Shown here: positions 194 through 64,000 of the stretch, piece by piece
How the letters are laid out: every line of letters starts with the position of its first letter
How positions within the stretch are numbered: the first letter of the stretch is position 1
Source: Candidatus Methanomethylophilaceae archaeon
Lineage (GTDB): Archaea; Thermoplasmatota; Thermoplasmata; Methanomassiliicoccales; Methanomethylophilaceae
Assembly (NCBI GenBank): GCA_944320495.1
Contig: CALUHR010000013.1
Location: forward strand, 416,687-480,686
Reading direction: 5' to 3'
Length of the DNA stretch: 64,000 bases
Program-made: the position numbers and the translations under genes
Notes under the pieces: generated by a model
The model's database searches: none
The model's input: the letters and a program-made list of their open reading frames with translations, nothing else
Told to the model about the DNA's origin: nothing

Positions 194-1741
194 TCGCAGT
201 TTGAGCAGTTTATCCGGGTTCGCGGCCCGGAGTATGAGGGGTTCCAGCCCTCCGAATGCGTCCGGGAGTGCGAAGCTCCCTCCGGCGGTGTCGCACGGCA
301 CGTACACCAGCCCCTTGACGCTGGGCTTGCTCAGCTTCAGCTTGGAGTGCGTCTGCGAGCACTGGGTCAGGTACATCTCCACCAGCCTGGACGCCTCGGT
401 CCTGGTGCAGAGCGGGATGAACACGGTGCGGGATCCAGGGGACCCCTCGGATGCGGAGTCGGCGAGGCGGCCGATCCCCGCGCTCCCGCTGATGCTGTGC
501 TCCTCGCCTTTGAGGCGGTTCAATATGGAGCTTTCGGGAGCCGCTGCGAAGATGTCGGTCAATCCCGAGCGGGGGTCGGACAGCGCCCTCTCGAACACCG
601 TGAACACGGCGGGGACCATCAGGTCCTCCTTCACGACCACGGACTTCTTGGAGAGGAACGAGCCGGTGGTGAAGCTGTACTGCAGGTCCACGTCCCAGAA
701 GGGCATCAGCGAGTCGCCTCCGCCCTGGCATATCGGTATCGTGCCGCCGTTCTTGGCCGCCACGACGTCGTTGACGTAGCCGTAGAGCTCGAAGTCGCGG
801 GCCTCCGACGTCAGCAGCCTGTTCCATTGCGGGTTGTCCGGGTATTCCGCGGAGGCGACCCCGTTGATCAGCGTGAGCGTCTTGAGCGGGTCCTTGGACG
901 TGCCGTTGTTGACCATGTCGACCACGTTCTTCAGCGTCCTGGTCTGGGAGATCTCCATGTCCACAGCCCTGAGGGTCACGGCGAGCCTGGGGTTGGAGAG
1001 CAGCTCCCTCTTCGCCGCCTCCAGCTCGGAGAGCCCCTCCTCCGCCTTGGCGGAGCATCCGAGGGCGTCCCCGTTGAGCACCATGTCGGATGCAGCGCAG
1101 ACGTCGGACAGCGCCCTGAGCCTGGATGCGAGCGGCTCGTACCCTTCGCACTTCGCCATTGCGTCCGCCGATTCGAGGAAGTTCTTCGACATGATGGCGA
1201 AGCGCCCGGGGGACCCGGTCTCGGTCAGCAGCTTGGAGTTGTTCAGTATCATCGCATAGGCGTTGGCGATGCCCTCGCCGGTGACGATGGATTTCCTGCT
1301 CTCGTCGTCCACGGCCATGGGCTCGACGCTCTTCAGCCTGGCCTGGAACTCGAAGGCCTGCGTGGAGGTGTGGTCGGACCTGACCGGCTCCCCCTTGCTG
1401 AACGGGAGCACGATGAGCGGCGAGGCGATCACGGAGTTCAGCGCGAAGCGGTACTCGTTGATCTCCACGTCCACCCTGGGCTTGACGCTGTTGACGTATA
1501 TGCTGTGCCTGGCGACGGGGTCCACGTTGTCGACCGACCCCATGGCGAAGCCGCCGGGGATGGTCTTGGCGATCCAGCTCTGGATCTGCCCCATCATCTG
1601 CTCCATGTACTTCCTGGCGTCCAGCCTCTGCTGGGTGGTGCCGCAGCTGGGGCAGGTTATGTAGGGGGAGTCGGACTCTATGTCCTTCCTGTCGAGGGGC
1701 GCGCCGCAGTACTTGCAGCGCAGCTCAACCATGTCGTCCAT
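194..1741 (-). CDS. zinc-ribbon protein of unknown function (CGA-terminated)
   Basis: About 515 aa. The N-terminus carries a zinc ribbon (CKYCG near residue 9 and CPSCG near residue 30), followed by a long globular region with no motif I recognise. The only CGA codon in the frame is at 194-196, after NPDKLLKL. Read as Arg, the frame adds a 16-residue tail and overlaps the next gene by 40 nt; read as stop, it ends just before that gene's ribosome binding site. It starts 1 nt after the TAA of the upstream 309-aa gene, so the two are probably one operon. Both carry Cys pairs, suggesting partners, but the role is unknown. Confidence 0.7.
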
Positions 1742-1742
1742 C

Positions 1743-2672
1743 TTATCTTCCCATCCTCGCGAAGGCGATCTGGCTCTGCAGCGCGGCGATCTCCGCCTGC
1801 AACCTGGCCTCCATCGCCATCATCTCCCTCATGGACTGCTGGTAGTACTCGTTGGCGATCTCGTCGGAGCGGTTGGAGATCGCGGTGTAGCATGCCTTGC
1901 AGACGTAGATGTGGTCGTACCCCTCCCTGGACGCCGCGGCCGCAGAGGCCTTGTCCTCCAGGGACTTGGGCGCCTCCGCGGGGGCCGCGTAGAAGTTGAT
2001 GCCCTCCCCGGTGGCGATCCTGCCGCATATCCAGCAGGTGCAGGTGGCGGAGTACTCCCTCACCCTGCGCAGGTTCTCCTCGGCGGACTGCCCGTTCTGC
2101 TGCCTGTACCCCGCCGCGATCTGCTGGTACTCCGCGGCCTGGGACGGATTCTCCCCGACGGTCGCGTCCGCCATGATCTCGTATGCCAGGGCCATGAGGT
2201 TGTAGAACTCGGTGGTCCCGGTGACGGAGGTGTCCTTCCTGAAGAGCGAGAGTGCGATCAGGCTGCGGTCGCCGATCCTGGACTGGAAGTCCTGGGCGAG
2301 AGCTATGAGCTGCTGTCCGCGCTCCATGCCGGACGTCCTGTCGCCGGATGAGAGCAGGGTCATCTTCCTGATGGTGAGCTCGCACTCCGTCTTCATCTCC
2401 GCCACGTCGATGGTCTCCAGCCCGAACTGGACGGTCGTGGCGGAGGTCAGCCTCTCCAGGGTCGTCAGGAGGTTCTGGTATGCCTGCATGCTGCTGAGCC
2501 TGTCCGACAGGTCGATCAGGGCGACCTGTACGGCCGCGACGTCGTCCGTGCCGCCCTCCTTGTCTATGGATTTGATGAGGTAGTCGCGGGCCTTGTCGAA
2601 CTCCCCTCTCTTGATCAGCTCCTGGCTGTCATCGTAGAGCTCGTCGCCGTTCTTGAATAGCTTGAAAGCCAT
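1743..2672 (-). CDS. unknown protein with Cys pairs and C-terminal coiled coil
   Basis: 309 aa ending in TAA. An alpha-helical N-terminal half (TPR-like in feel, with no clear repeat) is followed by two Cys pairs, CTCWICG near residue 210 and CKAC near residue 258, that could bind one zinc. The last 50 residues are rich in Glu, Gln, Met and Ala and look like a coiled coil. The start is supported by GGGAG just upstream and a TATA-like TTTAATC on the minus strand near 2708-2714. It is first in an operon with the zinc-ribbon gene and the small membrane gene. Function unknown. Confidence 0.65.
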   Translation of the reverse strand: MAFKLFKNGDELYDDSQELIKRGEFDKARDYLIKSIDKEGGTDDVAAVQVALIDLSDRLSSMQAYQNLLTTLERLTSATTVQFGLETIDVAEMKTECELTIRKMTLLSSGDRTSGMERGQQLIALAQDFQSRIGDRSLIALSLFRKDTSVTGTTEFYNLMALAYEIMADATVGENPSQAAEYQQIAAGYRQQNGQSAEENLRRVREYSATCTCWICGRIATGEGINFYAAPAEAPKSLEDKASAAAASREGYDHIYVCKACYTAISNRSDEIANEYYQQSMREMMAMEARLQAEIAALQSQIAFARMGR

Positions 2673-2794
2673 GTCCCATCTCCCTGGTTGAGTATGCGCG
2701 TCGCATGATTAAATGGGTGGTCCTGGCGTTCCCCGAGCCGCGGGCCCCGTCCGCGAAGCATGGATTCCGACAACATCTCTGTATGGCCGAATAT

Positions 2795-2845
2795 GATTAG
2801 ACGTTTAGTCTATTGAATCGAATGACCTTGGATGAATGTCTAATC
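2795..2845. promoter_or_regulatory. inverted repeat upstream of GSIII, possible operator
   Basis: GATTAGACGTTT at 2795-2806 and GAATGTCTAATC at 2834-2845 form an imperfect inverted repeat; the first eight bases of each arm match exactly. It lies just upstream of the glutamine synthetase TATA box. A related ATTAGACATTTGTC occurs at 23701-23714, upstream of the amino-acid symporter. A nitrogen-responsive regulator is a guess from context. Confidence 0.35.
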
Positions 2846-2863
2846 TTTTCAGATAATCACAAC

Positions 2864-2871
2864 GTATAAAT
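2864..2871 (+). promoter_or_regulatory. TATA box of the glutamine synthetase gene
   Basis: GTATAAAT is centred about 28 nt before the ATG at 2896. In archaea transcription begins about 25 nt after the TATA box, so the mRNA should be leaderless or nearly so. No Shine-Dalgarno is seen before this ATG, which fits. Confidence 0.65.
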
Positions 2872-2895
2872 CAAAGATATCCCCAATCCGGGTTC

Positions 2896-5079: not shown

Positions 5080-5092
5080 GAGATTGGTTCAG

Positions 5093-9499: not shown

Positions 9500-9502
9500 C
9501 GC

Positions 9503-9524
9503 GGACGGGGTCCAGACCCCGTCC
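9503..9524 (+). terminator. hairpin after gltB
   Basis: GGACGGGG and CCCCGTCC form a perfect 8-bp stem with a 6-nt loop, starting 4 nt after the gltB stop codon. No T-tract follows directly, so termination is inferred from position. Confidence 0.5.
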
Positions 9525-9580
9525 GGCCTCCGTCGGGGGCCAGCCGACCGAGTGCTCCTCAAACCCTTTCCCTTTCCGCG

Positions 9581-9641
9581 CCCCTTTAGAAGGGGGACCA
9601 ATCAAGCTTATATAGAAGTTCTAACATAAGCGGGTTTAGAA
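9581..9641 (+). promoter_or_regulatory. thermosome promoter with repeated TTTAGAA elements
   Basis: A TATA box (CTTATATAG, 9607-9615) is flanked by a perfect 15-nt palindrome CCCCTTTAGAAGGGG (9581-9595) and by an inverted pair TTCTAA (9619-9624) and TTAGAA (9636-9641). The motif TTTAGAAG thus appears before and after the TATA box. This could be a heat-shock operator; the binding protein is not known. Confidence 0.45.
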
Positions 9642-11941: not shown

Positions 11942-11946
11942 TTGAA

Positions 11947-21278: not shown

Positions 21279-21605
21279 TCGCTCGGGAAGGCGCTCGATC
21301 CTGAAGATGACGGGTCTCGTCCCGTCGTTGCAGCAGGCGATCATGACGCCGTCGTCCCTGTTCCACCCGTCCATGATGGCTCCGCCGTTCATGGCGGCGT
21401 AGACGTACCTGCTGATGCAGCTCCATGCCTCCGAGCAGAACCTCCCGTGCATCAGATGACGCCATTCGTCGGGGGTGACGATGAACTCGTCGCCCGGGTG
21501 GAATAGCGAGCACGGCCCCGTCTCGGGGTTCGACAGATACTCCTTCTGGAGGTCATCGTAGCATCTGCATTCGAGGACGGTGATCCTCACGTTGTGCATC
21601 GTCAT
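21279..21605 (-). CDS. TIGR04076-like protein, paralog 1 (CGA-terminated)
   Basis: About 108 aa. It resembles its neighbour at 21602-21955: both share the VTVL/ITVL opening, SRYVY, a G-W-(S/N)-R-D-D stretch and the ending CCNDGTRPVIFRIERL. This pattern recalls the small TIGR04076 family, whose function is not known. The start overlaps the upstream stop (ATGA). No TGA, TAA or TAG ends this frame where the paralog ends; instead CGA at 21279-21281 follows RIERLPE. Read as Arg, the frame runs on for over 200 codons antisense through proB. Read as stop, it ends just short of the proB hairpin. Confidence 0.7.
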
Positions 21606-26941: not shown

Positions 26942-27319
26942 TCGAAGGGCCGATGGGGGAACCCGAGGGATGACGCGGTCCACCTCGTTCTTCGCCCATG
27001 GCACGGTGTCCAGATACTCATCGCGGTCGAAGGACAGCTCGTCCGGCAGCTCCGAGAACAGGCGGGACTCCATCTCGCAGTCCTCCCTGACCTTCCTACC
27101 GAGGATCGCCGCGCACACGTCGCAGTACCCGATGTCGCGGGTGGCCACAATCTCGATCTCGTACCCCGCCTCCTCCAGGAACTCCCTCGCGGCGGCCTGG
27201 GCGGAGGTCTCTCCCTCCTCGACGTGTCCGCCGGGCATCTCCCAGCCCTTCCTGCGCCTGTGCCAGACCATCAGGAACCTGTCGCCGTCGAAGGCCACGG
27301 CGTAGGCGGTCCTGCCCAT
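26942..27319 (-). CDS. Nudix hydrolase (CGA-terminated)
   Basis: About 125 aa. The Nudix box is intact: GGHVEEGETSAQAAAREFLEEAGYE, residues 30-54, with the REFLEEAG metal-binding core. It should hydrolyse a nucleoside diphosphate linked to another group; the substrate is not evident, though a small size and the MVWHRRRKGWEMPGG lead-in recall MutT/8-oxo-dGTP-like enzymes. It begins 1 nt after the fibrillarin stop. The only CGA codon (26942-26944, after PPSAL) is followed two codons later by TGA, so the end differs by only 3 codons between readings. Confidence 0.87.
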
Positions 27320-32088: not shown

Positions 32089-32352
32089 TCACAGCGAGAT
32101 GAGGATCCCGACGACCGTTATGGCCAGCAGTATGCCGGCGACCATCGCCCAGAACATGTCCCTCTCCTTCAGGAGGCAGGCGAGGCTGACGATAATGCCC
32201 GCGAACGGGGAGAGTATGAGTACGAGGATGCCCGCGTGGAGGAGGCCGTCCCCCATGCCGAGGAGCTCCGCGGCGATGCCGGCGACCATCAGGACCATCC
32301 CGATCATCACGACCGCACGGAGCATGAGCGCGGTGGACTTGTTCAGCTCCAT
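32089..32352 (-). CDS. DUF1634 membrane protein
   Basis: 87 aa with three hydrophobic helices, fitting DUF1634 (MLRAVVMIGMVLMVAGIAAELLG; then SPFAGIIVSLACLLKERDMFWAMVAG). DUF1634 genes are usually paired with TauE/SafE transporters, as here, and the protein may be an accessory subunit. Its ATG overlaps the CGA of the upstream gene in a CGATG junction (32350-32354). Ends in TGA. Confidence 0.8.
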   Translation of the reverse strand: MELNKSTALMLRAVVMIGMVLMVAGIAAELLGMGDGLLHAGILVLILSPFAGIIVSLACLLKERDMFWAMVAGILLAITVVGILISL

Positions 32353-33173
32353 CGGAGCACCCCCGCCGCCTGTAGAAGGACGATCGTCGCCATCACGAAC
32401 ACGACGACGGAGAAGTACTTCCTGAGATGCCTGGCGTTGATCCTGCGCGTCACCACGGTCCCGGCCAGGGACCCTAGGAACGCACCTATCGCGATCCCGG
32501 CGGCGAACTCCAGGAGGACCTGTCCGCCGAGGAAGTAGGTGATCGCTCCGGAGAAGGCGGTGATGCCGATCATGTAGCTGCTGGTGGCGCTGGCCGTCTT
32601 CATCGGCACGTGCATGTACAGGTTCATCAGTGGGACCTTGACCATCCCGCCGCCGACGCCCGTCATGGAGGATATCATCCCGGCGACGGTGCAGAGTGCC
32701 ATCCCACCTCTGACGTGTTGGAGCTCGTACGAGACGTCCTCCCCGCTCGCCTCGTCCCTGTAAGAGAAGGCGTACCTGCCCCTTGCGTCCTCGGATGGGT
32801 GGACTATCGTCTCGGGGCTCCTGATCATGCGGTATCCGCTGAAGTAGACGATGATGGCGAAGATCACCATGAGGACCCATTCCTCGAGGTACGTCGCGAC
32901 TATCGCCCCGATTATCGCTCCTGTCGCCGTGGTTATCTCGAGAAGGAGGCCCAGGCGCACGTTCGAGAGGCCCTTGTCCACGTAGACCGTGGACGCTCCC
33001 ACGGATCCGGCTATGATGCCTATGAGGCTGATCGCCACCGCCTCCGTCGGCTCCAGACCCATGAGGAGGAGGACGGGCACGAAGATGATGCCTCCACCGA
33101 GGCCGAACAGGGCCCCGAGTATGCCGGCTCCGAGGCCGATGACCATCAGCAGAACCAGCAGCAGCGGATCCAT
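32352..33173 (-). CDS. TauE/SafE family transporter (CGA-terminated)
   Basis: 273 aa, about eight membrane segments with duplicated halves, including GALFGLGGGIIFVPVLLLMG near residue 20 and the repeat SSMTGVGGGMVKVPLMNLY near 172. The family exports or imports sulfonates, sulfite and other organosulfur anions; the substrate here is unknown. A TATA (GTATAGAAA, minus strand, 33194-33203) 25 nt upstream suggests a leaderless mRNA. The only in-frame CGA is at 32352-32354 and overlaps the DUF1634 ATG as CGATG; a TGA follows two codons later, so either reading changes the end by 3 codons. Confidence 0.87.
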
Positions 33174-39866: not shown

Positions 39867-39876
39867 GGTGGAAACC

Positions 39877-41031
39877 GTGGGCGCGTACTCCGACGGGATG
39901 GGGAAGCCGGGTCTGGCGGCCGTGATGACCCTGTACTTCTTCAGTCTGGGGTTCTGCATAGTGACCCCTGCGATGGCGAAGTTTGCCGAGGCCTTCCCGT
40001 CCCAGGAGTACGCGCTCATAAACTCCCTTCCGACGATCTTCATAGCGGCTGCAGGGATAGCCTTCGGATTCGTGGCCGGCAGAAAGGTCGGATACAGGAC
40101 GATGGCCGTCGCAGGTTCAGCTCTGTGCCTGGTCGCCGGCATAGCTCCCGCGTTCATCGACGATTTCGGGCTCATCCTCGTATGCCGCTCCATCGTCGGC
40201 ATCGGGGTCGGGCTGCTCATACCGATGGCGAACGCCCTGGTCAACGGCTCCTTCGAGGGGGATGCCAGGGCAAGGTTGCTGTCTGCAGGCAGCCTGATGC
40301 TCAACCTGGGCGGCATAGTCCTGCAGTCCGTCGGAGGGTTCCTGGCAGACGTCGGATGGCAGACGACGTTCTACGGCTACCTCCTATTCATCGTGGCGCT
40401 GGTGATGTCGTTCATGATCCCCGATGTCCGCAGCGACGGACCCATGGGGTGGAGGTGCCTGGACCGCCGGATGGCCGTCGTGGTGGCCCTCTTCATGGTT
40501 TACGGCATCCTCCAGTTCTCGGTCATGCAAAACACCTCCGAGCTGTTCGAGCTCCGTGGCGCGGGAGGCGCATCCGCATCAGGCCTGGCACTGTCGGTTT
40601 TCACCGCTCTGGGGTGCGTCGGCGGGATGCTGTATTCACGCATAAGGTCGGTCTCAACCCGTGCGGTGTTTCCCCTGCTGTGGGCGGCAACGGCGGTGGG
40701 CGCGCTGATACAGGCGGTCTCCGAGAGCGGAGCGCTGATGACCGCAGGGCTGGCGGTGTTCGGATTCGGCTTCGGAATGATCATCCCCGCCTTCGTCGAT
40801 TGGGCAGGGGTCATGAGCAAGCCGTCCACCGTCGCATTCGCCACGGCCCTGACGACATCCGGGCTCTACACGGGCAGCTTCCTCTCCCTGGTGTGGAGCG
40901 GGGTCGGCGATTCGCTGTTCGGGGAGCACCTGGTGTCGAATCTGTGGGCGGCGGTCGCTGTCGGTGCACTGCTGGCGGTCGTGTTCCTCCTCTATGACCC
41001 CCTGAGGTCCAGCTCCGATGGGAGGAGCCGA
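39877..41031 (+). CDS. MFS transporter (CGA-terminated)
   Basis: About 384 aa, twelve hydrophobic segments, a normal MFS size. GTG at 39877 is chosen for the GAGGTGG 6 nt upstream; another GTG lies at 39868. The loop 2-3 motif appears as GFVAGRKVGYRTM near residue 65 and CRSIVGIGVGLLIP near 105. The first in-frame CGA (41029-41031) falls after a short cytoplasmic tail, 4 nt before the next ATG; read as Arg, 31 more Arg-rich residues would overlap that gene. It probably imports the methyl donor used by the adjacent methyltransferase or exports its product; this is inference. Confidence 0.82.
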
Positions 41032-41035: not shown

Positions 41036-41596
41036 ATGGACGCCGTCGAAGCAGCCGTGCGTTCGGTGCCAGGTCCGAACGTCACGTACGTGGGGTCGTT
41101 CGATCTGGCGGAGCACCCGGTTAGGATAACGGAGGAGGTCCGCCGTGCCTGCGAAGCCAACTACTGCGGGCACTATGGGAGGAATCGGGCATGTCCTCCT
41201 CACGCACCGCCGTGCCAGACGTGCGCAGCGATGCTCTCGCGTTACATCAAGGTGATATTGATCAGGACGACGTTTGCACGCGACGGACCGTTCGACCTCG
41301 AAGGGATGGAGAGGGCGTCAGAGGCGCACGCGGGCTACTCCTTCGATGTTCGTAGGATGCTCCGGGGCATCGACGGGCTGGAATTCACGATGCTTGGGGC
41401 CGGTCCTTGCACCCATTGCTCGGGACGCCCCTGTCCGGAGGATGGGTGCAGGTCGCCTCCCGATCGCATGTTCTCGATAGAGGCGTACGGCATCGATCTG
41501 ACATCGTTCCTCGTCTCCAACGGCATTGACCGCAGGGGAGGAGACAGGGAGCAGTCGTACTTCTCGATGGTCTTCTACAACCCTCTGGAGCATCGA
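41036..41596 (+). CDS. DUF2284 metal-binding protein (CGA-terminated)
   Basis: About 186 aa; ATG at 41036 with GGGAGGAG 9 nt upstream. Cys clusters C-x4-C then RACPPHAPPCQTC near residue 42-62 and GPCTHCSGRPCPEDGC near 130, followed by SIEAYGID, are the DUF2284 pattern, predicted to bind metal or Fe-S. DUF2284 genes often accompany corrinoid methyltransferases, possibly in reductive activation of cobalt. The first CGA (41594-41596, after NPLEH) lies 7 nt from the stop of the convergent gene; read as Arg, the frame overlaps that gene by 26 nt and ends in TAG, used nowhere else here. Confidence 0.8.
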
Positions 41597-42577: not shown

Positions 42578-42991
42578 ATGGATACGCGCGTCCGGTATCT
42601 GGTTGTGCTCATCGCGTACGTGGCCATCGTGATAGTCGCTGGCACTGCGGTGACGATCAGGTTCACGGAGCTGGACGCCGTCGATTCGTTCTATTACGTG
42701 GTGCAGACCCTGTGGACGGTCGGCTACGGCGATGTCGTCCCGGCAGGACACGTCGGCAAGGTGATCACGCTCTGGCTGAACATCCTGGGGACGGTGGCCG
42801 TCCTCTCCGCGATCGGAATCGTCAGCGGCATCGTCCTGGACCGGTTCATGGACCGCCAGAGGAAGCTGGAGTCCGAGGCGTCGGAGCGCCGCAGGGAGAT
42901 GCGCAGGGCCGTCCTGGCATGGGCCGACCGCAACGGCATAGACCGCTCCGAGATCGAGGGGGTGATTGGCGATGGTCCTAAGGAGCACCGA
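42578..42991 (+). CDS. two-TM potassium channel subunit (CGA-terminated)
   Basis: 137 aa. Two membrane helices flank a pore loop with the K+ selectivity filter LWTVGYGDVVP (near residue 50); a charged helix (RQRKLESEASERRREMRR) follows. This is a minimal KcsA/MthK-like subunit; four filters make a pore. The first in-frame CGA (42989-42991) ends the protein at PKEH, 20 nt into the next channel gene; its Shine-Dalgarno GGTGATT lies within this end. Read as Arg, the frame continues 136 codons out of phase over the second channel. Leaderless by TATA spacing. Confidence 0.8.
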
Positions 42992-43445
42992 TGCGGAGCT
43001 GCTGAGGTGGGTCCTCATCGTCGCCGTCGTCCTGGGCGCGTTCACCCTCATGTTCTCTCACGTGGAGGGGTGGGACCTCTTCGACTCGTTCTACTTCGTG
43101 CTCTGCACGTCCACCACCTCCGGCTTCGGGGACGTCGTGGTCTCTCCGGAGAACAGGCTGCTGGCATCCGTCTTCATCATCGTGGCCGCCACCCTGGTCC
43201 TGTCCCTGGCCGCCAACGTGGGGCAGTGGATCATGGACTCGGTGGGCCGCAGGATGGCGGTAAGGAGGTTCAGGGGCGAGGTGGCGGATACGAAGCTCCG
43301 GCTGAGGGGCCTGGGTGCCGACACGTCGGACCTGGAGGCCGAGCTGGATCGCATCATGGAGGCCGGGAGCAGGGCCATGGGGGAGATGAGGGCCGATGAG
43401 CTCGATCTCGGTCCAGAGCTGGAGGGTCTCCGCAGGAGGCGCCGA
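42972..43445 (+). CDS. second two-TM channel subunit, TSGFGD filter (CGA-terminated)
   Basis: 157 aa from the ATG at 42972, with GGTGATT upstream. Two helices, a pore loop with TSGFGDVVV near residue 49, then a basic segment and a coiled-coil-like tail (DLEAELDRIMEAGSRAMGEM). The filter resembles the second pore of two-pore channels (GFGD instead of GYGD). With the preceding gene it may form a heteromeric K+ channel, a split version of a two-pore design. The first CGA (43443-43445) ends it after LRRR; without it the frame fuses to the downstream AsnB-like gene across a TATA box. Confidence 0.75.
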
Positions 43446-45193: not shown

Positions 45194-45724
45194 ATGAGCG
45201 AGCTATCCGACGCATTGAAGGAGTGCGGAGCGCTGCAGTTCGGCGAGTTCACCCTCGCCTCCGGCGCCAAGAGCGACTACTACATCAACATCAAGAAGGC
45301 CAGCACGGACCCGAAGGTCCTGGGCCTCATCGCCCGCCTGATGGCGGAGAAGGTCCGCGAGAACGGCATCGAGGCCGACAGGATCGCCGGCGTCGTGCTC
45401 GGGGCCGTGCCGCTGGAGGCCGCGCTGGCCCTGGAGACGGGCCTCCCGTTCGTCATGGTCCGCAAGGAGAAGAAGGACCACGGGACCGGGAAGCAGATCG
45501 AGGGCGACCTGAACGAGGGCGAGAGCGTCCTGATGGTGGAGGACGTGGTCACCACCGCCGGGTCCTGCATCAAGGGCATCCACGTGCTCCGCGAGGCCGG
45601 TGCGGACGTGAAGTGGGTCCTCTCCGTCATAGATCGCGAGGCCGGAGGCGCCGAGGCCCTGGAGGCCGAGGGAGTGAGGTTCATCCCGCTCGTCAAGGGC
45701 TCCGAGCTCCTGGGTGAGAGATGA
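45194..45724 (+). CDS. pyrE: orotate phosphoribosyltransferase
   Basis: 176 aa from the ATG at 45194 (a GTG at 45185 overlapping the carS stop is possible). FTLASGAKSDYYINIKKA near residue 18 and the PRPP loop VLMVEDVVTTAGS near 113 identify OPRTase, which forms OMP from orotate and PRPP in pyrimidine synthesis. It overlaps the next gene by ATGA. Ends with AGA TGA; no CGA. Confidence 0.94.
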   Translation: MSELSDALKECGALQFGEFTLASGAKSDYYINIKKASTDPKVLGLIARLMAEKVRENGIEADRIAGVVLGAVPLEAALALETGLPFVMVRKEKKDHGTGKQIEGDLNEGESVLMVEDVVTTAGSCIKGIHVLREAGADVKWVLSVIDREAGGAEALEAEGVRFIPLVKGSELLGER

Positions 45725-47061
45725 GGCCCGATCCCGACTGCAGGCTCTGCGGGCTCTGCGAGGGCCGCACGCAGGTCGTCTACCCGGACGGGAACCCCGG
45801 CAACGGGATCATCTTCGTCGGGGAGGGGCCGGGCGAGAACGAGGACCTGAAGGGCAGGCCGTTCGTGGGCAAGTCGGGGAAGATCCTGGAGGACATGATG
45901 GCGGCCCACGGCTTCGGCCGCGCCGACGTCATGATCACCAACACCGTCAAGTGCAGGCCGCCTGGCAACAGGGACCCCCTCCCGGAGGAGATGGCCGCCT
46001 GCCGCCCGTTCCTGTTCTCCGAGCTGGAGGATGCCAGGCTGGTCGTCGGCCTGGGGAAGTCGGCCTGCAGGAACCTGATGGGGTACGAGGGGCCGATGTC
46101 CCAGATAGTCAACGTTCCCGTGACGATAGACATCAACGGCCGCGAGGTCCTGTTCATCCCCACGTACCATCCGGCGGCGACGATATACAACCGCAACTCG
46201 CGTGCCGCCCTGGACGAGACCATGAGGGTGGTGTCCCAGTGGCTCGGGAGGCCGGAACGGCAGGAGCCGAAGACCATGAGGTTCGGCGGGTTGATGCTGG
46301 ACATGGACGGGACCGTCTACAAGGGCGGCGTCCCGATCCCTGGGGCCAGGGAGCTCATATCGTTCCTGAGGGACCAGAGGGTGCCATTCGTCTTCCTGAC
46401 GAACAACTCTTCCCACCCGCGCTCGTTCTACGGCGACAAGCTCAGGCGCCTGGGCTTCGACGTCACCGACCGCGAGGTCCTGACTTCGACGATCGCGACC
46501 ATAAGGTTCCTCCTCTCCCAGCGGATGGGCAGGACCGTGTACCCTGTGGCGGTGCCCGGGGTCGTCGACGAGCTCAGGGAGGCGGGCATCCCGCTGGTCG
46601 AGGAGGACCCGGACATCGTGCTGCTGACCTTCGACACGATGATCACCTACGAGAAGATCAACAGGGCGTACAGGTTCCTGAAGGGCGGGGCGGAGCTCAT
46701 AGCCACGCACCCTGACGACCTGTGCCCGACCGAGGACTCCTACGACATAGACATCGGACCGTTCATCAGGATGTTCGAGCAGATGTGCCAGACCACCGCG
46801 ACGGTCATCGGGAAGCCGAACCGTCTGATGCTCGAGATGGCCGCCCGCGAGATGGGCGTCGACCCGGGCGAGTGCGTCATGGTCGGAGACCGCCTGTACA
46901 CGGACATAGCGATGGCGCAGAACGCCGGCACGCAGTCGGTGCTGGTCCTCTCCGGCGAGACCGACGAGGGGATGCTGGAGGGCTCCGACATCCACCCGAC
47001 GGCCGTGCTCGGGTCCGTCGCGGAGCTCCCAGAGCTCATACTCCAGTCATTCGACGATCGA
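45721..47061 (+). CDS. uracil-DNA glycosylase fused to HAD phosphatase (CGA-terminated)
   Basis: About 446 aa. Residues 1-180 are a family 4-like UDG with Fe-S cysteines (CRLCGLC near residue 7), GEGPGENEDLKGRPFVGKSG near 35 and the HPAA motif near 152. Residues 195-446 are a HAD-IIA (NagD-like) phosphatase: LMLDMDGTVYKGG, FLTNNSS, IGKPNRLM and VGDRLYTDI. No stop or CGA separates them, so this is a true fusion, perhaps joining uracil excision with removal of a nucleotide or sugar phosphate. CGA at 47059-47061 follows LQSFDD; a second CGA comes 12 codons later and TAA only at 47125. Confidence 0.8.
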
Positions 47062-52406: not shown

Positions 52407-52490
52407 ATGAGCATCATGACGGTGCCCTCTGCCGACGTAGATGCCGCTCCGAGTGCCAGTGCAGTCCATCGGGACCTGGAGGACTGCCGA
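52407..52490 (+). CDS. short leader ORF, 24-27 codons (CGA-terminated)
   Basis: From ATG 52407 or, fitting the TATA better, ATG 52416, the frame reads MTVPSADVDAAP... and ends GAC TGC CGA, the CGA overlapping the permease ATG as CGATG (52488-52492). If CGA were Arg it would end four codons later at TGA. The permease Shine-Dalgarno GGAGG lies inside it. It looks like a translationally coupled leader peptide, but it is short and could be spurious. Confidence 0.4.
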
Positions 52491-54136
52491 TGTCCCTCCT
52501 GAAGAAGATAGATGAGATATCCGGCAGCTACAAGGCGAGGAACGCCTGGCTGACGTTCGCCATAGTTCTCTTCATAGCGATCATCGTCATCCCCGCGATA
52601 TTCGTAGTCACCAAGCTCTTCACGGAGTGGGACCTGGTCAGCGGGGTCCTGAACGATCCCGCGAGCATGGAGGTAATCGAGGGCGCGGTGTGGAACTCGT
52701 TCAGCATAGCGGCCATAGTCACGGTCATCGACATCCTCGTGGGACTGCCGATGGCGTGGATCATGGTCCGCAGGGATTTCAAGGGCAAGAAATGGCTCGA
52801 CACCCTGCTGGACATGCCCCTGGCGTTCCCGACCGCCGTCCTCGGAATCTCGGTGGTCATGTTCTGGGGCGCCCCCGAGGGCATCACGATCCCGGGGCTG
52901 GGGCTGGACCTGTCACCGTACGTGATGCTCCTGTTCCTCCACATCATATTCACCTATCCGTACATGGTCCGCTCCCTGTCCGGAATCCTGGAGCAGATCG
53001 ACGTCAACTACGAGACCGCGGCCATGACCCTCGGCGCTTCGAAATGGACCGCCGTGAGGACCATCACGATCCCCCTGTTCCGCGCCGGTCTCGCCACCGG
53101 GTTCATCCTGTGCTTCGCCAGGTCCCTGTCGGAGACCGGGGGCACATACATCGCCCTGACCATGATGGGCGTCGAGAGCACCTTCTTCACCGGGCCGTCG
53201 TTCATCAGCTGGCTGAAGTCCGACCCGACCATGGTCGACTCCGGGGACTACATGGGCGCCATGATCCTGATCAGCGTAGTCATGATCGTCCTGGCCCTGA
53301 TCCTCCTCGTGGTGGTGAAGTGGATCATCGCGAGGTTCAGGATCCCCTGGAAGAAGGTCTGGCCGGAGATCGGCAGGAGCGTCAGCCGCGGCCCCCTCCC
53401 GAAGGTCAAGGACGTCATCACAGTCGTGTTCCTGATTATCGTGGTCCTGCTGCCCTCTTTCTACATATTCGCGTATCTGACGGAGCCGATCCCCGACATA
53501 GACTACGGGACGCTCCTGTCGTCCACCGGGGTGTCGTTCCTGGTTGCGGGCGTGGCCGTCCTCGTCGACCTCATCCTGGGCATCCCGCTGTCGCTCTACA
53601 TCGCCAGGCACAAGGGCGGGAAGCTCGCCGGCATCCTGGACGGGCTGGTCAACGTCCCCCTGATCATCCCGACCACCGCGCTTGGATTCTCCCTGGCGCT
53701 GTTCTGGGCCAGCTTCGGTGCTGGGGACTCGATGGCCATCGTGCTGGTCATCCTCGGTCACATCTCGTTCACGTATCCGCTCGTGGTGAGGAACCTGGTG
53801 GGCGCGATAGAGGAGGTCAACCCGGAGTGCGAGGAGATCGCCATGACCCTCGGCGCCAAGCCCTTCCGCGCGTTCAGGACAATCCTCATGCCGATCATCA
53901 AGTCGTCCGTCGTCGCCGGATGCATCCTGGCGTTCACCAGGTCCCTGGGCGAGACGGGCGCGACCATCGCCATCAGCGACAGCGTCAGCACGGTCCCGAT
54001 CTACATCACCAACCTGGTCCAGGACCACATGTACACCGAGGCGGCGATGTGCTCCATCGTCCTGATCGCCATCTGCTTCGTGCTGATGATGGTCGTCAGG
54101 ATGCTAACACACAGGAGGCAGGGTAGGGATGCCTGA
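52490..54136 (+). CDS. ABC transporter permease, two fused domains
   Basis: 548 aa, about twelve helices in two homologous halves, each with the EAA loop: NYETAAMTLGASKWTAVRTI near residue 182 and ECEEIAMTLGAKPFRAFRTI near 447. The fused layout is that of FbpB (ferric iron) or ThiP (thiamine) permeases. Two ATPase genes follow, overlapping (its TGA lies inside the first), but no substrate-binding protein gene is present, so the substrate is open. ATG at 52490 with GGAGG 9 nt upstream. Confidence 0.87.
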   Translation: MSLLKKIDEISGSYKARNAWLTFAIVLFIAIIVIPAIFVVTKLFTEWDLVSGVLNDPASMEVIEGAVWNSFSIAAIVTVIDILVGLPMAWIMVRRDFKGKKWLDTLLDMPLAFPTAVLGISVVMFWGAPEGITIPGLGLDLSPYVMLLFLHIIFTYPYMVRSLSGILEQIDVNYETAAMTLGASKWTAVRTITIPLFRAGLATGFILCFARSLSETGGTYIALTMMGVESTFFTGPSFISWLKSDPTMVDSGDYMGAMILISVVMIVLALILLVVVKWIIARFRIPWKKVWPEIGRSVSRGPLPKVKDVITVVFLIIVVLLPSFYIFAYLTEPIPDIDYGTLLSSTGVSFLVAGVAVLVDLILGIPLSLYIARHKGGKLAGILDGLVNVPLIIPTTALGFSLALFWASFGAGDSMAIVLVILGHISFTYPLVVRNLVGAIEEVNPECEEIAMTLGAKPFRAFRTILMPIIKSSVVAGCILAFTRSLGETGATIAISDSVSTVPIYITNLVQDHMYTEAAMCSIVLIAICFVLMMVVRMLTHRRQGRDA

Positions 54137-55229
54137 GATTGTTCTGGACGACCTCTGCAAGGACTTCGACGGCCATGTCGCAGCCGACCATCTGAGCCTG
54201 ACCATAGGCGATGGGGAGTACGTCTGCATCCTGGGTCCCACCGGGGCCGGGAAGACCACCGCCATGAGGATGATCTGCGGTCTCACGATCCCCGATTCCG
54301 GGAGGGTGCTCCTGGACGGGAGGGACGTGACCATGGATTCGCCGGACTCCAGGAACGCCACCATGCTCACGCAGACCTACGCGCTATTCCCGCACATGAC
54401 GGTCTACAACAACGTCATGTTCGCCCCCAAGACCAAGGGGTGGCCGGAGGGCGAGTCGAAGCAGATCGTCAGGAGCATGCTGCACCTGGTGCATCTCGAC
54501 CAGAAGGCGGACTGGGTCCCCGGGGAGCTATCCGGCGGCCAGCAGCAGCGCATTGCCCTCGCCCGCGCCCTCGCATCCGGGTCGAAGATCCTCCTGCTGG
54601 ACGAGCCGCTCAGGGCGCTGGACGCGCGCCTGAGGATCGACCTGAGGAAGGAGCTCAGGTCCCTGGCCAAGGAGATGGGGCTCACGTGCATCCACGTCAC
54701 CCACGACCAGGATGAGGCCCTGGAGATGGCCGACCGCATCGCCGTCATCCGCAAGGGCAGGATCATACAGTTCGGGACCCCCCGCGAGGTCTTCGAGAAC
54801 CCGGCCACGCCGTTCGTGGCCAACTTCGTGGGCAGGTCCAACATATTCTCCGGCAAGGTCGTCGGAGCCGGCGACGGCAGGGTGTCCGTGGACGTCGGCG
54901 GGATCGTCCTGACCGGGAGGGGGGACGGGATGGAGCCCGGCTCCGAGGCGGTTCTCGCCGTCAAGGTCGGGTTCACCAGGCTCTCGGCGCCCGGGGAGGG
55001 GCCGGAAGGTTCCGTGAAGGGCATAGTGGAGCGCATCGTGTACGAGGGGGCCACCGTGACCGTGGAGGTCTCCGCCGGGTCGTTGGGCCTGGTTTCGTCC
55101 AAGCTGCCGAGCGCGAGGTTCGAGGAGTTCAGCGTCGGAGCCGCGGTCGATGTATCGTGGCCGGCCGACAAGGCGACGGTGTTCCAGATGCCCGCCGGCG
55201 GGCTCGAAGAGGAGATGAGGTTGGACCGA
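54129..55229 (+). CDS. ABC transporter ATPase 1 (CGA-terminated)
   Basis: 366 aa. Walker A GPTGAGKTT near residue 35, signature LSGGQQQRIAL near 133, Walker B ILLLDEPLRALD near 155, H loop HVTHDQ, then a TOBE-type C-terminal domain: the CUT1/PotA group. The first in-frame CGA (55227-55229) follows EEEMRLD and overlaps the next ATG as CGATG. The second ATPase ends in almost the same residues (EEEIRLE then TAA), direct support that the natural end is here. Read as Arg, 32 unrelated residues would follow. Confidence 0.88.
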
Positions 55230-59192: not shown

Positions 59193-59202
59193 TGGTTTCA
59201 CC

Positions 59203-59580: not shown

Positions 59581-59943
59581 TTGGACTCACTCTCTCATAT
59601 TGATGAATGGCTCCGCGCCCATCAAGGCCGGAGGTTCACCCCCGTGAAGGAGGCGTCGATACGCATGTTCTTTGCAATCATGCTATCTGGACCACCCCTA
59701 CGGGAGTATCTGGATATTAAGATTACTGGGAAAACGGAATCTGGCACTCGTCTGGTGCCGGCATGTGTGGATCAGGTCCGGCGGATAGTTCGTCAGCGTC
59801 CCGCAGGGGTCTCCGGTCGGCGACGGCGGTGAGCACCACCGATGTGATCAGGTACGTGATTAGACCGGCGCCCGGGGATGTCCGCGCGGAGCCTTCCGGC
59901 TCCGTACGCGGTCACGAGCCCGGGGTCGCGGTGGCGAAGCCGA
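59581..59943. other. 363-nt region without a supported gene
   Basis: Between the aIF5A start and the Nop5 end. It holds the aIF5A promoter and, on the plus strand, a short frame (about 59665-59832) with unusual codon choice, including a CGA near its end; I see no family resemblance and do not call it. The Nop5 frame would extend into this region only if its two CGA codons were read as Arg. Confidence 0.4.
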
Positions 59944-61044
59944 TCGCCGCCTGCGCGGTCCGCCCTTGCCCTTGCCGCCCCTGTTCCTGGGCTTCCCCGA
60001 CTTCTGCTTCTGGGGCTTCTTCGGCGGGTCGGGGTACCTCCTGCGGATGTCCTCCACCCTGGCCCTGAACTCCTCGTTCAGGCGGTCCCCGGCGAACTCG
60101 CCGTGGTACTCGTCGATCTTCGCCGCGATCAGGACCTTGCCGGCCAGCGCCCTGGCGACCTTCCCGCGCTGCCAATAGGGCGAGCGGTGGACCTCCGGGT
60201 GCTGGTAGATTATGCCGTGCTTGGGCCCCCTCTTGCCGGAGCGCATGCTCCTGAACATGGCCTTCTCGGCCCCGAGGAGCTGCACGGTGGAAGACGGGAG
60301 GGAGGCGAGCCTCTCCAGCCCTCCGGCGAGGGACACCAGCCTCGCGGCCAGCGGTCCTCCGAGCATGGCGCACATGTTGGGGCACGACTCCTCGACGATC
60401 CCCTGGATGTAGGCCTGGGTCCTGAGCTCGTCGTCGTAGAGGCGGTCGAGGGTGTCCGCCAGGTCCATGACCGCGCGGAGGTCCTCGTCATCCATGTCGG
60501 ACCCGATGGACTCGATGTCTATGCCGAGCTCCCCCATCACGGAGTCCCTGTCGCCGTATCTGGCGACGAGCTCGGCGTACCTCCTGTCGTGGGCGTAGTC
60601 CGCGAGCTCCGGGAAGTGCATCCCGTACCACTCGTGCAGCCTCTCGTTGTACAGGTTGATCGTCGCGATCTGGTCGTCCAGGCATCTGATGGCCTGGGCC
60701 ATGCTGCGGTCCCTGGCTATGGGCTCGGAGGTCCTGAGCCTGCCGAGTCCCAGCATGACCTCGTGCATGAACGCGTCGTCGTATCCGTAGTCGGCGGCAT
60801 GGATGAACGAGGAGTCGAACATCATGGGCTTCCCGAGCTCGGACTGCCTGCGCTCGGATACGGAGGGCTTCTCGATTCCGGCGACGAGCTCGCGCTCCTC
60901 GTCGAGCACGCCCCCGCGCTGCATCTCCGCCAGCTTCTGCGCCGCGGCCTCGGCGTCCTTGGGCATCAGCCTCTTGTCGAGGATCCTCCCGGACTTCTCG
61001 TCCACGAGGAAGCACCCGAACCATTTCGTCACGAGCACCGCCAT
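59944..61044 (-). CDS. nop5: Nop5/Nop56-58 box C/D sRNP core protein (CGA-terminated)
   Basis: 366 aa. N-terminal fibrillarin-binding domain, a coiled coil, and the Nop domain with SCPNMCAMLGGPLAARLVSLAGG near residue 220 and GAEKAMFRSMRSGKRGPKHGIIYQHP near 258. The tail is Lys/Gly/Arg-rich (KGKGGPRRR), as usual. The first CGA (59944-59946) follows that tail; read as Arg, 28 further residues containing a second CGA would be added. It guides rRNA methylation together with fibrillarin (27321-27974). The ATG overlaps the CGA of the upstream aldolase gene as CGATG. Confidence 0.9.
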
Positions 61045-61646
61045 CGCATCACCCCCAGCTTCGCGAGCTCGGAGTCCGGGAGGTCCTCAGCATCGCCGCA
61101 GAGCAGCTGCAGGCGGGCCTGGAACTCCAGCTCCTCCATCCTGTCGAAGGCCTCCTCCAGGGTGGTCCCCTGCGTGAGGGCGCCGTGGCGGACCATGAGC
61201 ATGGCCTTCGCGTCGGCGTGCTCGGCCACGGCGTCCACGAGCTCCTGGGTGCCCGGGGTCACGTACGGGACCTCCGCGACCCTCCCCAGGAGGAGCGCCC
61301 CTTCTGGGGTGAGGTTGCATCTGAGCCTCTCGCCCCGGACGGTGATCGCGATGCAGTTGAGCGGGTGGCAGTGGACCACCGCGTTCGTTCCGGGGTTGGC
61401 GCGGTACAGTGCCAGATGGAAGCCCGTCTCGATCGACGGCCTCCCTCCTGACACGACGGTGCCGTCCATGGAGACCTTCACCAGGTCCTCGGGGGACAGC
61501 AGGCTCTTGTTCCTGCCGGACGGCGTGATCAGGATGCCGTCGTCGATCCTGACGCTCATGTTCCCGCCGGCCGACACGGTGAGGTCCCTGTCGTACAGCA
61601 TCCTGCAGGTCGCGACCAGCGCCCCGCGAGCCTCCGCCTCGTCCAT
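61044..61646 (-). CDS. class II aldolase (CGA-terminated)
   Basis: 200 aa. Zinc-dependent class II aldolase/adducin fold: SAGGNMSVRI near residue 25, TPSGRNKSLLSPEDLV near 41 and the metal pair HCHPLN near 92. Directly downstream of mtnA (1-nt gap), it fits the aldolase of the DHAP shunt, which splits 5-deoxy- or 5-methylthio-ribulose phosphate into DHAP and an aldehyde; MtnB dehydratase or fuculose-phosphate aldolase are alternatives. CGA at 61044-61046 follows AKLGVM and overlaps the nop5 ATG; a TGA follows 5 codons later. Confidence 0.82.
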
Positions 61647-61647
61647 G

Positions 61648-62646: not shown

Positions 62647-62730
62647 GTTAACAACGGGGGAAGGTCGGGGACGTAGATAAGATGATGCCGATCCCCGTCC
62701 GTGCGAATCTCCAGTTCCATGATGCGTACA

Positions 62731-62739
62731 GTTTTTATC
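62731..62739 (+). promoter_or_regulatory. TATA box of the ArsR-like regulator gene
   Basis: GTTTTTATC, centred about 27 nt before the ATG at 62762; a leaderless mRNA is expected. Confidence 0.5.
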
Positions 62740-62761
62740 ATTCGCAGGCATCACCCGGCTC

Positions 62762-63508
62762 ATGACCGACGGCCCACTCACAGACTTCGAGCTGTACTTC
62801 ACCAAGAACGGACTGGTGCAGGTGTCGAACGACGTGAGGCGCCGCATCCTCCACGAGCTGGAGACGAAGGACCTGTCCCTCACAGACCTCTCCAAGATCC
62901 TCGGCAAGGCGCAGTCTACCCTTTCGGTACATCTGGACAAGATGGTCGACGAGAGCCTCATCGCCGTACACGACGATCCGGAGGACAGCAGGAGGAAGGT
63001 GTACTCCCTCGTGTCCATCATGCTCGCGTACTCCAAGCCCCCGTCGGACGACGCCATGACCATGGCGATGAAGGTCCTCACGGAGGTCGCGGATGACCCC
63101 ATCGCGACGCGCAACGCCCTGACCAAGTTCCTCTTCCTGGGGTTCGACGGGATGGGTCTTTCGGTGGAGCCCATGGCCACGATCCTGGGGTCCATACACG
63201 CTATGGCGCTGGGAGGGTTCCTCACGGGACCCACCATCGAGGACACGGTCGCCAACGCCAGGGACTACTACAAGAAGATGGGGTTCGGTGACGCCAGTGT
63301 GTTCTCCCTGAAACCGCTGTCCATCACGATAAAGGACGACCTCTCGTTCTCGGCGGACGCCGCCAAGTCTCTCGGCAACTACGCCATCGGGTTCTTCAGC
63401 AAGGTCCTGGAGGACGCCACAGGGAAGACCTACTCCGTCACATCGAGCGAGGTCTTCGGTCTCGACGGCAACTACTTCCGCTTCACCATCGAGCCCGTGA
63501 GCCAGCGA
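62762..63508 (+). CDS. ArsR-like winged-helix regulator (CGA-terminated)
   Basis: 248 aa. Residues 15-85 form a winged helix (VSNDVRRRILHELETKDLSLTDLSKIL, then STLSVHLDKMVDESLI). The remaining 160 residues, with GLDGNYFRFTIEPVS at the end, are probably a ligand-sensing domain I cannot place. The frame has no TGA, TAA or TAG before the window's right edge; the first CGA (63506-63508, after EPVSQ) abuts the CGA of the convergent gene. Msr regulators of methylsulfide genes in Methanosarcina are ArsR-type, but a link to the methyltransferase at 38052 is speculation. Confidence 0.78.
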
Positions 63509-64000
63509 TCGCCTCGACGGTTCGAACGTCAGGAGGGCGCCGTTGCCCAGGGTCTCGCAGGAGACGAGCGTGAGCCTCATGCCTCCGTCGGCCACCCATC
63601 CGTCGCCGTCGCAGGGCGTGGGGGCGTCGCGGCCGCCGATGACGAGGCCTCCGACGAACACGGTGTACCTGTCCACCATGCCTGCTCTGAAGAACGACGA
63701 TATCGTCTCGCCGCCGCCCTCCACGAGGACGTTCTCGACCCCCATGTCCGCGAGCTCCTTCATGACCTTCTCCAGGTCGATGCGGTCGGCGCCGGCGCGG
63801 ATTATCTCCTCGCAGTCCCACTCGCGGTCGCAGCCCTCCAGGGTGACCATTATTGTCGGTGCCCTCTCGTCCAGGATCTTCGCTTCGTCCGGGGTCCTCC
63901 CGTGGGGGTCCAGAACGATCCTGATGGGGTTGGTGTCGTAGTCCAGGTCCTTGAGCGTGAGATGCGGGTCGTCAGCGACGACGGTGCCGACGCCCACGAG
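63509..64000 (-). CDS. RibD-type pyrimidine reductase (CGA-terminated, 5-prime end outside window)
   Basis: About 163 codons visible. The DHFR-like reductase of riboflavin/F420 precursor synthesis: GVGTVVADDPHLTLKD near the edge, NPIRIVLDPHGRTP, NVLVEGGGETISSFF and VGGLVIGGRDAPTP. In archaea the stand-alone form reduces 2,5-diamino-6-ribosylamino-pyrimidinone phosphate. The C-terminus after LLTFEPSR is CGA (63509-63511); read as Arg, the frame continues to 62738 antisense through the regulator. The two convergent genes meet with no gap at the palindrome CGATCG. Confidence 0.85.

What the first reader, a model, noticed from the sequence alone, without database searches (positions are those of the whole stretch)
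194..63511. CGA appears to be a third stop codon in this archaeon
In 18 genes (ends at 194, 21279, 26942, 30007, 32352, 36334, 41031, 41596, 42991, 43445, 47061, 51715, 52490, 55229, 59944, 61044, 63508 and 63509) the first in-frame CGA lies where the protein family or the spacing to the next gene says translation should end. Reading every other convincing gene codon by codon (including 1468-aa GltB, 1194-aa SMC and 727-aa GSIII) I found no internal CGA, although AGG and CGC are common. Read as Arg, the 18 frames run on as antisense or out-of-phase sequence, by up to 383 codons or off the window. Manual tally: 38 TGA, 18 CGA, 2 TAA, 0 TAG. A sense codon captured as stop beside TGA is new to me for any archaeon. 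Alternatives: C-to-U mRNA editing giving UGA, or an unassigned CGA that stalls ribosomes.
Basis: partly seen in the sequence, partly recalled or inferred. Interest (0 to 1): 0.97.

Follow-up and report, generated by a model that had tools for sequence, protein, structure and literature searches.

The report
Arginine codon captured as stop
In this methanogen-related archaeon the arginine codon CGA sits at the ends of about a quarter of the genes and is almost absent inside them, so it likely works as an extra stop codon, and the single CGA kept inside its release-factor gene is predicted to let the cell sense how much release factor it has.

Summary
All 18 listed sites read CGA; 17 are supported as gene ends, 52490 is not. 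Genome-wide, 415 of 1676 called genes end in CGA, 1185 in TGA, 56 in TAA, 20 in TAG. After coding sequence, CGA is followed by coding sequence in 7 of 255 cases, like TGA (62 of 921), unlike CGC (6045 of 7190). Orthologous ends swap CGA with TGA or TAA. Outgroups use CGA as ordinary arginine (5-6% of Arg codons).

New here: the aRF1 gene holds one in-frame CGA, codon 78, in 26 of 27 genus genomes, and one at codon 25 in all 11 aRF1s of a second clade including Methanomethylophilus. tRNA-Arg(UCG) survives, but its anticodon arm is damaged in 26 of 26 genus copies read.

Best reading: aRF1 ends translation at CGA, a weakened tRNA-Arg(UCG) still reads it sometimes, and aRF1 senses its own level through its internal CGA, as bacterial RF2 does with UGA. 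Termination by aRF1 and autoregulation are inferred. Ribosomal protein L18e also needs CGA read as Arg: two meanings.

The parts
194..1741 (-). gene ending in CGA (stop codon 196-194)
   Evidence: no Pfam family; run-on 15 codons, score -9.4
21279..21605 (-). gene ending in CGA
   Evidence: run-on 213 codons, first 30 score -7.8
26942..27319 (-). gene ending in CGA
   Evidence: run-on 2 codons
29633..30007 (+). gene ending in CGA
   Evidence: run-on 382 codons, first 30 score +0.5 (weak by score)
32352..33173 (-). gene ending in CGA
   Evidence: run-on 2 codons
36334..37890 (-). gene ending in CGA
   Evidence: no Pfam family; run-on 12 codons, score +1.9 (weak by score)
39868..41031 (+). gene ending in CGA
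   Evidence: run-on 30 codons, score -11.2
41231..41596 (+). gene ending in CGA (start uncertain; 41018)
   Evidence: run-on 10 codons, score -5.5
42605..42991 (+). gene ending in CGA
   Evidence: run-on 135 codons, first 30 score -24.0
42972..43445 (+). gene ending in CGA
   Evidence: run-on 335 codons, first 30 score -6.3
45721..47061 (+). gene ending in CGA; uracil-DNA glycosylase plus HAD hydrolase domains, the last domain ending at residue 436 of 446
   Evidence: run-on 21 codons, score -8.0
   Evidence: run-on 119 codons, first 30 score -9.3
54129..55229 (+). gene ending in CGA; ABC transporter ATPase with TOBE_2 domain ending at residue 352 of 366
   Evidence: run-on 31 codons, first 30 score -26.1
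59944..61044 (-). gene ending in CGA; Nop domain protein (fibrillarin partner)
   Evidence: run-on 27 codons, score -20.9
61044..61646 (-). gene ending in CGA
   Evidence: run-on 4 codons
62762..63508 (+). gene ending in CGA
   Evidence: run-on 220 codons, first 30 score -7.2
63509..64000 (-). 3' part of a gene ending in CGA; its start lies outside the window (window coordinate 64138)
   Evidence: run-on 256 codons, first 30 score -7.4

Best explanation
CGA ends about a quarter of this archaeon's genes and is nearly absent inside them, which most likely means that its release factor aRF1 stops translation at CGA as well as at UGA and UAA. The codon keeps a minority meaning as arginine. tRNA-Arg(UCG) is still encoded but its anticodon arm is damaged in this genus, which would let aRF1 win the race for CGA at gene ends. 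The aRF1 gene carries one conserved in-frame CGA. When aRF1 is plentiful it would cut its own synthesis short there; when aRF1 is scarce the weak tRNA would read the codon as Arg and full-length aRF1 would be made, the logic of bacterial RF2 but by readthrough in the same frame instead of frameshifting. Shown by sequence: CGA at ends, its near absence inside genes, stop swaps at orthologous ends, the single aRF1 CGA, the damaged tRNA. Inferred: that aRF1 itself recognises CGA, that the damaged tRNA is slow, that the aRF1 gene is autoregulated. Inferred history: CGA became rare in the family (about 1% of Arg codons in its other members), then was captured as stop.
For: Gene ends: 415 of 1676 called genes; CGA after coding sequence behaves like TGA, not like other Arg codons; run-ons score non-coding. 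Stop swaps: at exactly matching orthologous ends in the genus (20 named loci plus G014), CGA in G000 versus TGA in the relative 22, TGA versus CGA 5, CGA versus TAA 2, both CGA 3, both TGA 147, TGA versus TAA 10; 11 distinct G000 genes swap. GmhA-GmhB junction: in the 14 loci read the codon is CGA in 12, CGA one codon earlier in 1, TAG in 1; the search table also reports TAG within the match in G035 and TAA in G003, G011, G012. Sense use: non-aRF1 CGA 3 of 4692 Arg codons in 20 genus loci and 0 of 1928 in G014, against 141 of 2332 and 99 of 1918 in two outgroup sets; CGA at homologous ends 17 of 210 and 5 of 86 in the genus, 3 of 273 in the rest of the family, 2 of 83 and 0 of 64 in outgroups. 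aRF1: one CGA, codon 78, in 26 of 27 genus genomes that cover the site, and no other CGA in the aligned part of any of the 28 aRF1 stretches (three partial); codon 25 and no other in 11 of 11 rows of a second clade (100/100); 12 order-level aRF1s carry 0-5 CGA at scattered sites. tRNA-Arg(UCG): in 26 genus copies read, 31-39 pair broken in 18, C33 in place of U33 in 8 (7 of these also 27-43 broken); 7 of 7 outgroup copies intact. A 31-39 mismatch in a yeast tRNA gave an unstable, poorly charged tRNA with 80% lower effective concentration, and U33 is described there as present in almost all tRNAs (PMC3664417, passages).
Against: A tRNA-Arg(UCG) gene is present in G000 and in 26 of 31 genus genomes. 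L18e needs CGA read as Arg: codon 30 is CGA in 18 of 22 genus loci and in all 10 further genomes tried, seven of them outgroups where CGA is ordinary Arg, so that CGA is older than any stop role. The decoding motifs of aRF1 (NIKS, YxCxxxF) are unchanged and no substitution found explains acceptance of C in the first position. G035 has CGC at aRF1 codon 78, so the sensor is not obligatory. In G005 a second CGA falls inside GmhB. Three of the 7 cases of coding sequence after CGA in G000 are unexplained. In the homology test 27 CGA remained in 15,681 aligned codons; many lie at N- or C-terminal edges, not all were resolved. The yeast 31-39 mismatch also raised first-position wobble (PMC3664417), so the damage may not simply weaken the tRNA. 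For the codon-25 group the tRNA is intact (3 of 3) and the gene-end evidence is thin: 11 of 125, six of them apparently one orthologous junction, and at exactly matching ends a single swap to CGA. Single aRF1 CGAs also occur in family members that use CGA as rare Arg, e.g. L183 and L184. No RNA or protein data.
Confidence: 0.77

Rival explanations
1. CGA is effectively unassigned: the weak tRNA-Arg(UCG) cannot keep up, ribosomes stall at CGA and rescue factors (pelota-type) or slow leakage end the chain; aRF1 does not recognise CGA.
For: Damaged tRNA anticodon arm in 26 of 26 genus copies read; aRF1 decoding motifs unchanged.
Against: 415 genes would end in a stall, a costly routine; in the codon-25 group the three tRNAs read look intact yet CGA is avoided; a single CGA kept in the aRF1 gene itself points to aRF1 as the factor that acts there.
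Confidence: 0.12
2. The DNA codon CGA is edited to UGA in mRNA at gene ends, so termination is ordinary.
For: CGA differs from UGA by one C-to-U change; CGA and TGA swap at orthologous ends. DNA data cannot exclude it.
Against: It would need an editor acting at some 400 sites while sparing aRF1 and L18e (a shared motif at the sites was not looked for); CGA also swaps with TAA and TAG; editing does not predict a damaged tRNA-Arg(UCG).
Confidence: 0.05
3. CGA is an ordinary but avoided Arg codon; the run-ons are real C-terminal extensions and the ends are misread.
For: A tRNA-Arg(UCG) gene is present, and L18e and aRF1 contain CGA.
Against: Run-ons score as non-coding, CGA is followed by coding sequence in only 7 of 255 cases, orthologues stop at the same codon with TGA or TAA.
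Confidence: 0.04
4. The single CGA in aRF1 is kept for another reason (an RNA element or slow-folding pause), without autoregulation, while CGA is a stop elsewhere. This rival concerns only the autoregulation step and can be true together with termination at CGA.
For: In L18e a CGA is conserved across the order independently of any stop role, so conserved CGA codons can have other causes; the codon before the aRF1 CGA is GCT or TCT in 24 of 24 genus copies listed, rare spellings in G000.
Against: In aRF1 the site differs between groups (25, 50, 78) while the number stays at one, which fits a requirement for an in-frame CGA and not for one sequence element.
Confidence: 0.2

Closest known systems
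[quoted passage not shown] UUR in Pycnococcus; AGR of vertebrates recalled)
   Same: A sense codon vanishes from coding sequence and appears at gene ends (PMC6821328, passages).
   Different: Cellular archaeal genome with about 1700 genes; an aRF1-type factor, not mtRF1a; the cognate tRNA gene is kept in damaged form; there, unique mtRF1a changes were reported, here the known motifs are unchanged.
Bacterial release factor 2 autoregulation
   Same: In-frame stop early in the release-factor gene (E. coli codon 26; here codon 25 or 78), sensing of factor level by competition (inferred here); UGA nearly always followed by C (PMC5009743, passages), as is the aRF1 CGA in 24 of 24 genus copies listed.
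   Different: Bypass would be readthrough in the same frame, not +1 frameshifting; the sensor is a former sense codon; unrelated protein family (recalled); in the codon-25 group the next base is G. The C after codon 78 is largely dictated by the invariant Leu.
Arginine-codon reassignments in bacteria found by Codetta (AGG, CGA, CGG)
   Same: CGA is among the codons that change meaning (PMC8629427, passages).
   Different: Those are sense-to-sense. That survey's Table 2 lists no unexpected amino acid for archaeal sense codons, and Codetta cannot detect sense-to-stop changes (PMC9825746, passages).
Dual-meaning stop codons of ciliates
   Same: One codon is sense or stop by context (PMC4967479, search listing only).
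   Different: There standard stops gained sense; here a sense codon gained stop.

Membership tests
Sense-to-stop genetic code change | Codon marks gene ends | tested here: met
   415 of 1676 genes; orthologous stop swaps
Sense-to-stop genetic code change | Codon absent from coding sequence as sense | tested here: inconclusive
   Near absent (3 of 4692 and 0 of 1928 non-aRF1 Arg codons) but apparently used as Arg in aRF1 and L18e
Sense-to-stop genetic code change | Cognate tRNA lost | tested here: not met
   tRNA-Arg(UCG) gene present in G000, with a damaged anticodon arm
Sense-to-stop genetic code change | Release factor able to read the codon | not testable with these tools
   Motifs unchanged; residue 119 is Ala in 21/21 genus, 11/11 codon-25-clade and 5/5 other single-CGA rows, against 10 of 46 in the rest, two rows left out; effect unknown
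RF2-type release-factor autoregulation | In-frame stop-like codon early in the release-factor gene, conserved across species | tested here: met
   26 of 27 genus genomes, codon 78; 11 of 11 rows of the second clade, codon 25
RF2-type release-factor autoregulation | Bypass by +1 frameshift | tested here: not met
   The aRF1 frame continues unshifted after CGA
RF2-type release-factor autoregulation | Bypass responds to factor level | not testable with these tools
   needs expression data

The most novel reading that the evidence does not exclude
CGA is the first sense codon captured as a stop in a cellular genome: a whole clade of methanogens, many of them from gut and rumen, ends genes at CGA, has wrecked the tRNA that used to read it in two different ways, and keeps one CGA inside aRF1 so that the release factor gauges its own activity.
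Probability: 0.72. Interest if true: 0.97.

Novelty: new variant of a known kind. Interest (0 to 1): 0.95.

Why it matters
[quoted passage not shown] A sense codon turned stop in a free-standing archaeal genome would be a new direction of code change in cells, with intermediates laid out across living relatives: ordinary CGA in outgroups, rare CGA in the family, one CGA in aRF1, a damaged tRNA. It would make the route of codon capture directly testable, would give archaea an RF2-like feedback loop, and would mean that C-termini are wrongly annotated in many genomes of these methanogens. My searches (open-access library, titles and abstract starts of the listed papers only: 25 of 157, 0 of 0, 20 of 73, 25 of 26, 6 of 6, 6 of 6, 6 of 6, 11 of 12, 12 of 69) showed no report of it.

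Tried and rejected
Rejected: that only G000 and its near twin G008 use CGA as stop. Their long aRF1 and pelota frames suggested this, but the aRF1 codon showed the genus shares it. Rejected: that L18e is a second self-regulating site made for the new code; its CGA is order-wide in the genomes tried, and Rfam shows no RNA family there. Weak: a preference for T after CGA stops, 75 of 177 free ends against 158 of 554 for TGA (Fisher p 0.0008), but intergenic CGA is also followed by T in 34%. Failed designs: outgroup ORFs including antisense shadows as queries (discarded, redone); the first run of the coding test crashed on an N after five groups and part of a sixth, and one search gave the outgroups for four codons and the rest of the family for CGA only; ARAGORN run inside a script printed nothing and was replaced by the tool. 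The 'codon-25 set' was picked by its aRF1 codon (11 loci, L203 among them, which the tree puts elsewhere); the clade of the tree has L194 in place of L203, and one search used that clade. A claim that tRNA-Arg(UCG) is missing in G035, G013 or G016 was dropped: only 30 loci were read and those genomes are 87-88% complete. Pyrrolysine: TAG is followed by coding sequence in 36 of 64 cases, but PylB is not over its cut-off in G000; left open. No structure was predicted.
Full report
WHAT WAS CHECKED. The window is G000:C13:416687-480686, part of a 1.77-Mb genome in 14 contigs, 90.6% complete, 1.8% contaminated. The record titles of the 80 named loci found with its aRF1 mostly say Methanomassiliicoccales, Methanomassiliicoccaceae or Methanomethylophilaceae, and the UBA71 record falls inside its genus group in the aRF1 tree. 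All 18 sites of the finding carry CGA, 17 of them at ends of genes in my gene set.

GENOME-WIDE PATTERN. With CGA treated as a stop, 1676 genes cover 88% of the sequence and end in TGA 1185, CGA 415, TAA 56, TAG 20. They hold 514,247 codons and 32,785 Arg codons. Because that set excludes internal CGA by construction, other tests matter more. After 40 codons of coding sequence, CGA (255 cases) is followed by a standard stop within 40 codons in 150, by non-coding sequence in 86, is unclear in 12 and is followed by coding sequence in 7. For TGA coding follows in 62 of 921, for CGC in 6045 of 7190, for AGG in 9991 of 12316. Of the 7, by inspection, C8:98215 and C1:9793 are junctions to a following gene with its own ATG, two are aRF1 and the GmhA-GmhB junction, and three are unexplained (C5:178733, C8:9851, and C8:55685 in a flavodoxin-like frame, motif recalled). 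Run-ons of 20 codons or more (208 of 376 well-scored genes) average -0.32 per codon against +0.51 in genes; 33 of 208 are positive.

THE SAME TEST IN RELATIVES. Genus, 20 named loci: 31 cases, 14 coding of which 13 are aRF1 codon 78, 13 with a stop soon, 3 non-coding, 1 unclear. G014: 9 cases, 2 coding (aRF1 and one at L160:17519), 7 with a stop soon. Codon-25 set: 12 cases, 5 coding (one junction, each with an ATG two codons on), 3 non-coding, 3 with a stop soon, 1 unclear. Rest of the family, 20 loci: 28 cases, 21 coding, 5 with a stop soon, 2 unclear. Outgroups: 40 cases, 30 coding, 8 with a stop soon, 2 unclear.

HOMOLOGY COUNTS. These use G000 genes as queries, so a CGA at a place where G000 itself has CGA is not covered. 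In 20 named genus loci 3 of 4692 Arg codons outside aRF1 are CGA, in G014 0 of 1928, in the codon-25 set 2 of 2366, in the rest of the family 79 of 6317 (32 loci), in two outgroup sets of 12 loci 141 of 2332 and 99 of 1918 (at least two contigs occur in both outgroup sets). CGA at homologous gene ends, aRF1 left out: 17 of 210, 5 of 86, 11 of 125, 3 of 273, 2 of 83, 0 of 64 in the same order; four further loci with a single aRF1 CGA gave 0 of 32 ends. So CGA is a minor stop elsewhere in the genus and much commoner in G000. At exactly matching ends in the genus CGA meets TGA 22 times, TGA meets CGA 5 times, CGA meets TAA twice; in the codon-25 clade TGA meets CGA once and CGA meets TGA 9 times. 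At the in-frame GmhA-GmhB junction the codon is CGA in 12 of the 14 loci read, CGA one codon earlier in one (G005, which has a further CGA inside GmhB), and TAG in one; the search table also reports stops within the match in G035 (TAG) and G003, G011, G012 (TAA), whose exact position I did not read.

THE RELEASE-FACTOR GENE. aRF1 (eRF1_1, eRF1_2 and eRF1_3 domains) lies at G000:C2, followed directly by a frame that looks like argS. Its only in-frame CGA is codon 78, at an Arg invariant in the 15-sequence alignment. In the genus, 27 of 28 aRF1 stretches cover the site: 26 CGA, one CGC (G035), and none of the 28 (three partial) has a CGA elsewhere in its aligned part. G035's aRF1 frame meets a CGA just after the aligned part, where it should end. 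In 12 order-level relatives aRF1 has 0 to 5 CGA at scattered positions. In the clade of 11 rows that includes Methanomethylophilus 1R26 and UBA78 (100/100) the one CGA is codon 25 in 11 of 11; in L190 and L200 it is codon 50; in L197 and L201 codon 78 again. The genus forms one group (100/98) with G035 as sister to the rest. Whether one ancient event with moving sites or several events is right was not tested. In other family members with rare sense CGA, aRF1 also holds 0-4 CGA, often at 25, 27 or 123, and L183 and L184 have codon 25 alone, so part of the pattern may predate the stop role.

THE tRNA. G000 has Arg tRNAs with anticodons GCG, UCG, CCG, UCU and CCU. In 26 genus copies of tRNA-Arg(UCG) the anticodon arm is damaged: 31-39 mismatch in 18, C33 in 8, of which 7 also have a 27-43 mismatch. 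Seven outgroup copies and three from the codon-25 clade have U33 and five pairs, G-U counted. Five of the 31 genus genomes (G011, G013, G016, G017, G035) gave no copy in what I read; this is not evidence of loss. In a yeast tRNA the 31-39 mismatch lowered the tRNA's level and charging but also raised first-position wobble (PMC3664417, passages); a UCG anticodon could pair with UGA by such wobble, so the net effect here has to be measured.

THE EXCEPTION. L18e codon 30 is CGA in 18 of 22 genus loci and CGT in 4, and CGA in 10 of 10 further genomes, seven of them outgroups. Over all 32 loci it is CGA 28, CGT 4, while other Arg columns are mainly AGG. This CGA is older than the stop role and must be read as Arg for L18e to exist, so readthrough has to be workable in that context. 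It is the strongest result against a clean reassignment and may be one reason why the tRNA is kept.

MECHANISM. I judge aRF1-mediated termination at CGA with a weakened competitor tRNA most likely. Shown: positions, swaps, conservation, tRNA damage. Inferred: recognition by aRF1, slow tRNA, autoregulation. The parallel to RF2 (codon 26 in E. coli, UGA followed by C; PMC5009743, passages) is a likeness of logic, not of family.

LITERATURE. Seen as passages only: PMC8629427, PMC6821328, PMC9825746, PMC3664417, PMC13092985, PMC5009743. Searches listed no paper whose title or abstract start reports CGA as a stop in archaea; the library is open-access only and several lists were cut.

Noticed in passing
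L260, L263 and L358-L367 (rpl18e, codon 30): A stretch ATCTGGCGAGA(C/T) in ribosomal protein L18e keeps its CGA across the genomes tried in the order (28 of 32 loci CGA, 4 CGT), even where CGA is ordinary Arg; the reason is unknown.
   Followed up: partly
G000:C13:194145 (L342-L355): GmhA and GmhB are joined in frame by a stop-like codon (CGA, or TAG in G038) with no ATG in the codons just after it; it may be a programmed readthrough fusion.
   Followed up: partly
G000 genome: TAG is followed by coding sequence in 36 of 64 cases, as if read as an amino acid (pyrrolysine is known in this order), yet PylB was not found over its cut-off in this assembly; several cases look like antisense shadows.
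   Followed up: partly
L133 (G035), L277: G035, sister to the rest of the genus in the aRF1 tree, has CGC in aRF1 and CGT in L18e in place of CGA, and its aRF1 frame meets a CGA at its expected end.
   Followed up: partly
L060:4153-7165 minus; L103:10098-13110: aRF1 and a frame that looks like arginyl-tRNA synthetase (motif recalled, no family search run) lie one base apart on one strand in G000 and G008.
   Followed up: no
window:52490: The listed gene end at 52490 is not supported: no gene is called in that frame and the codons before it do not score as coding.
   Followed up: yes
L198:1144, L204:1561, L207:1477, L210:1394, L231:1090: In five codon-25 loci a CGA separates two in-frame coding stretches with a Met two codons after it; the homologous G000 gene appears to end in TAA.
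   Followed up: partly
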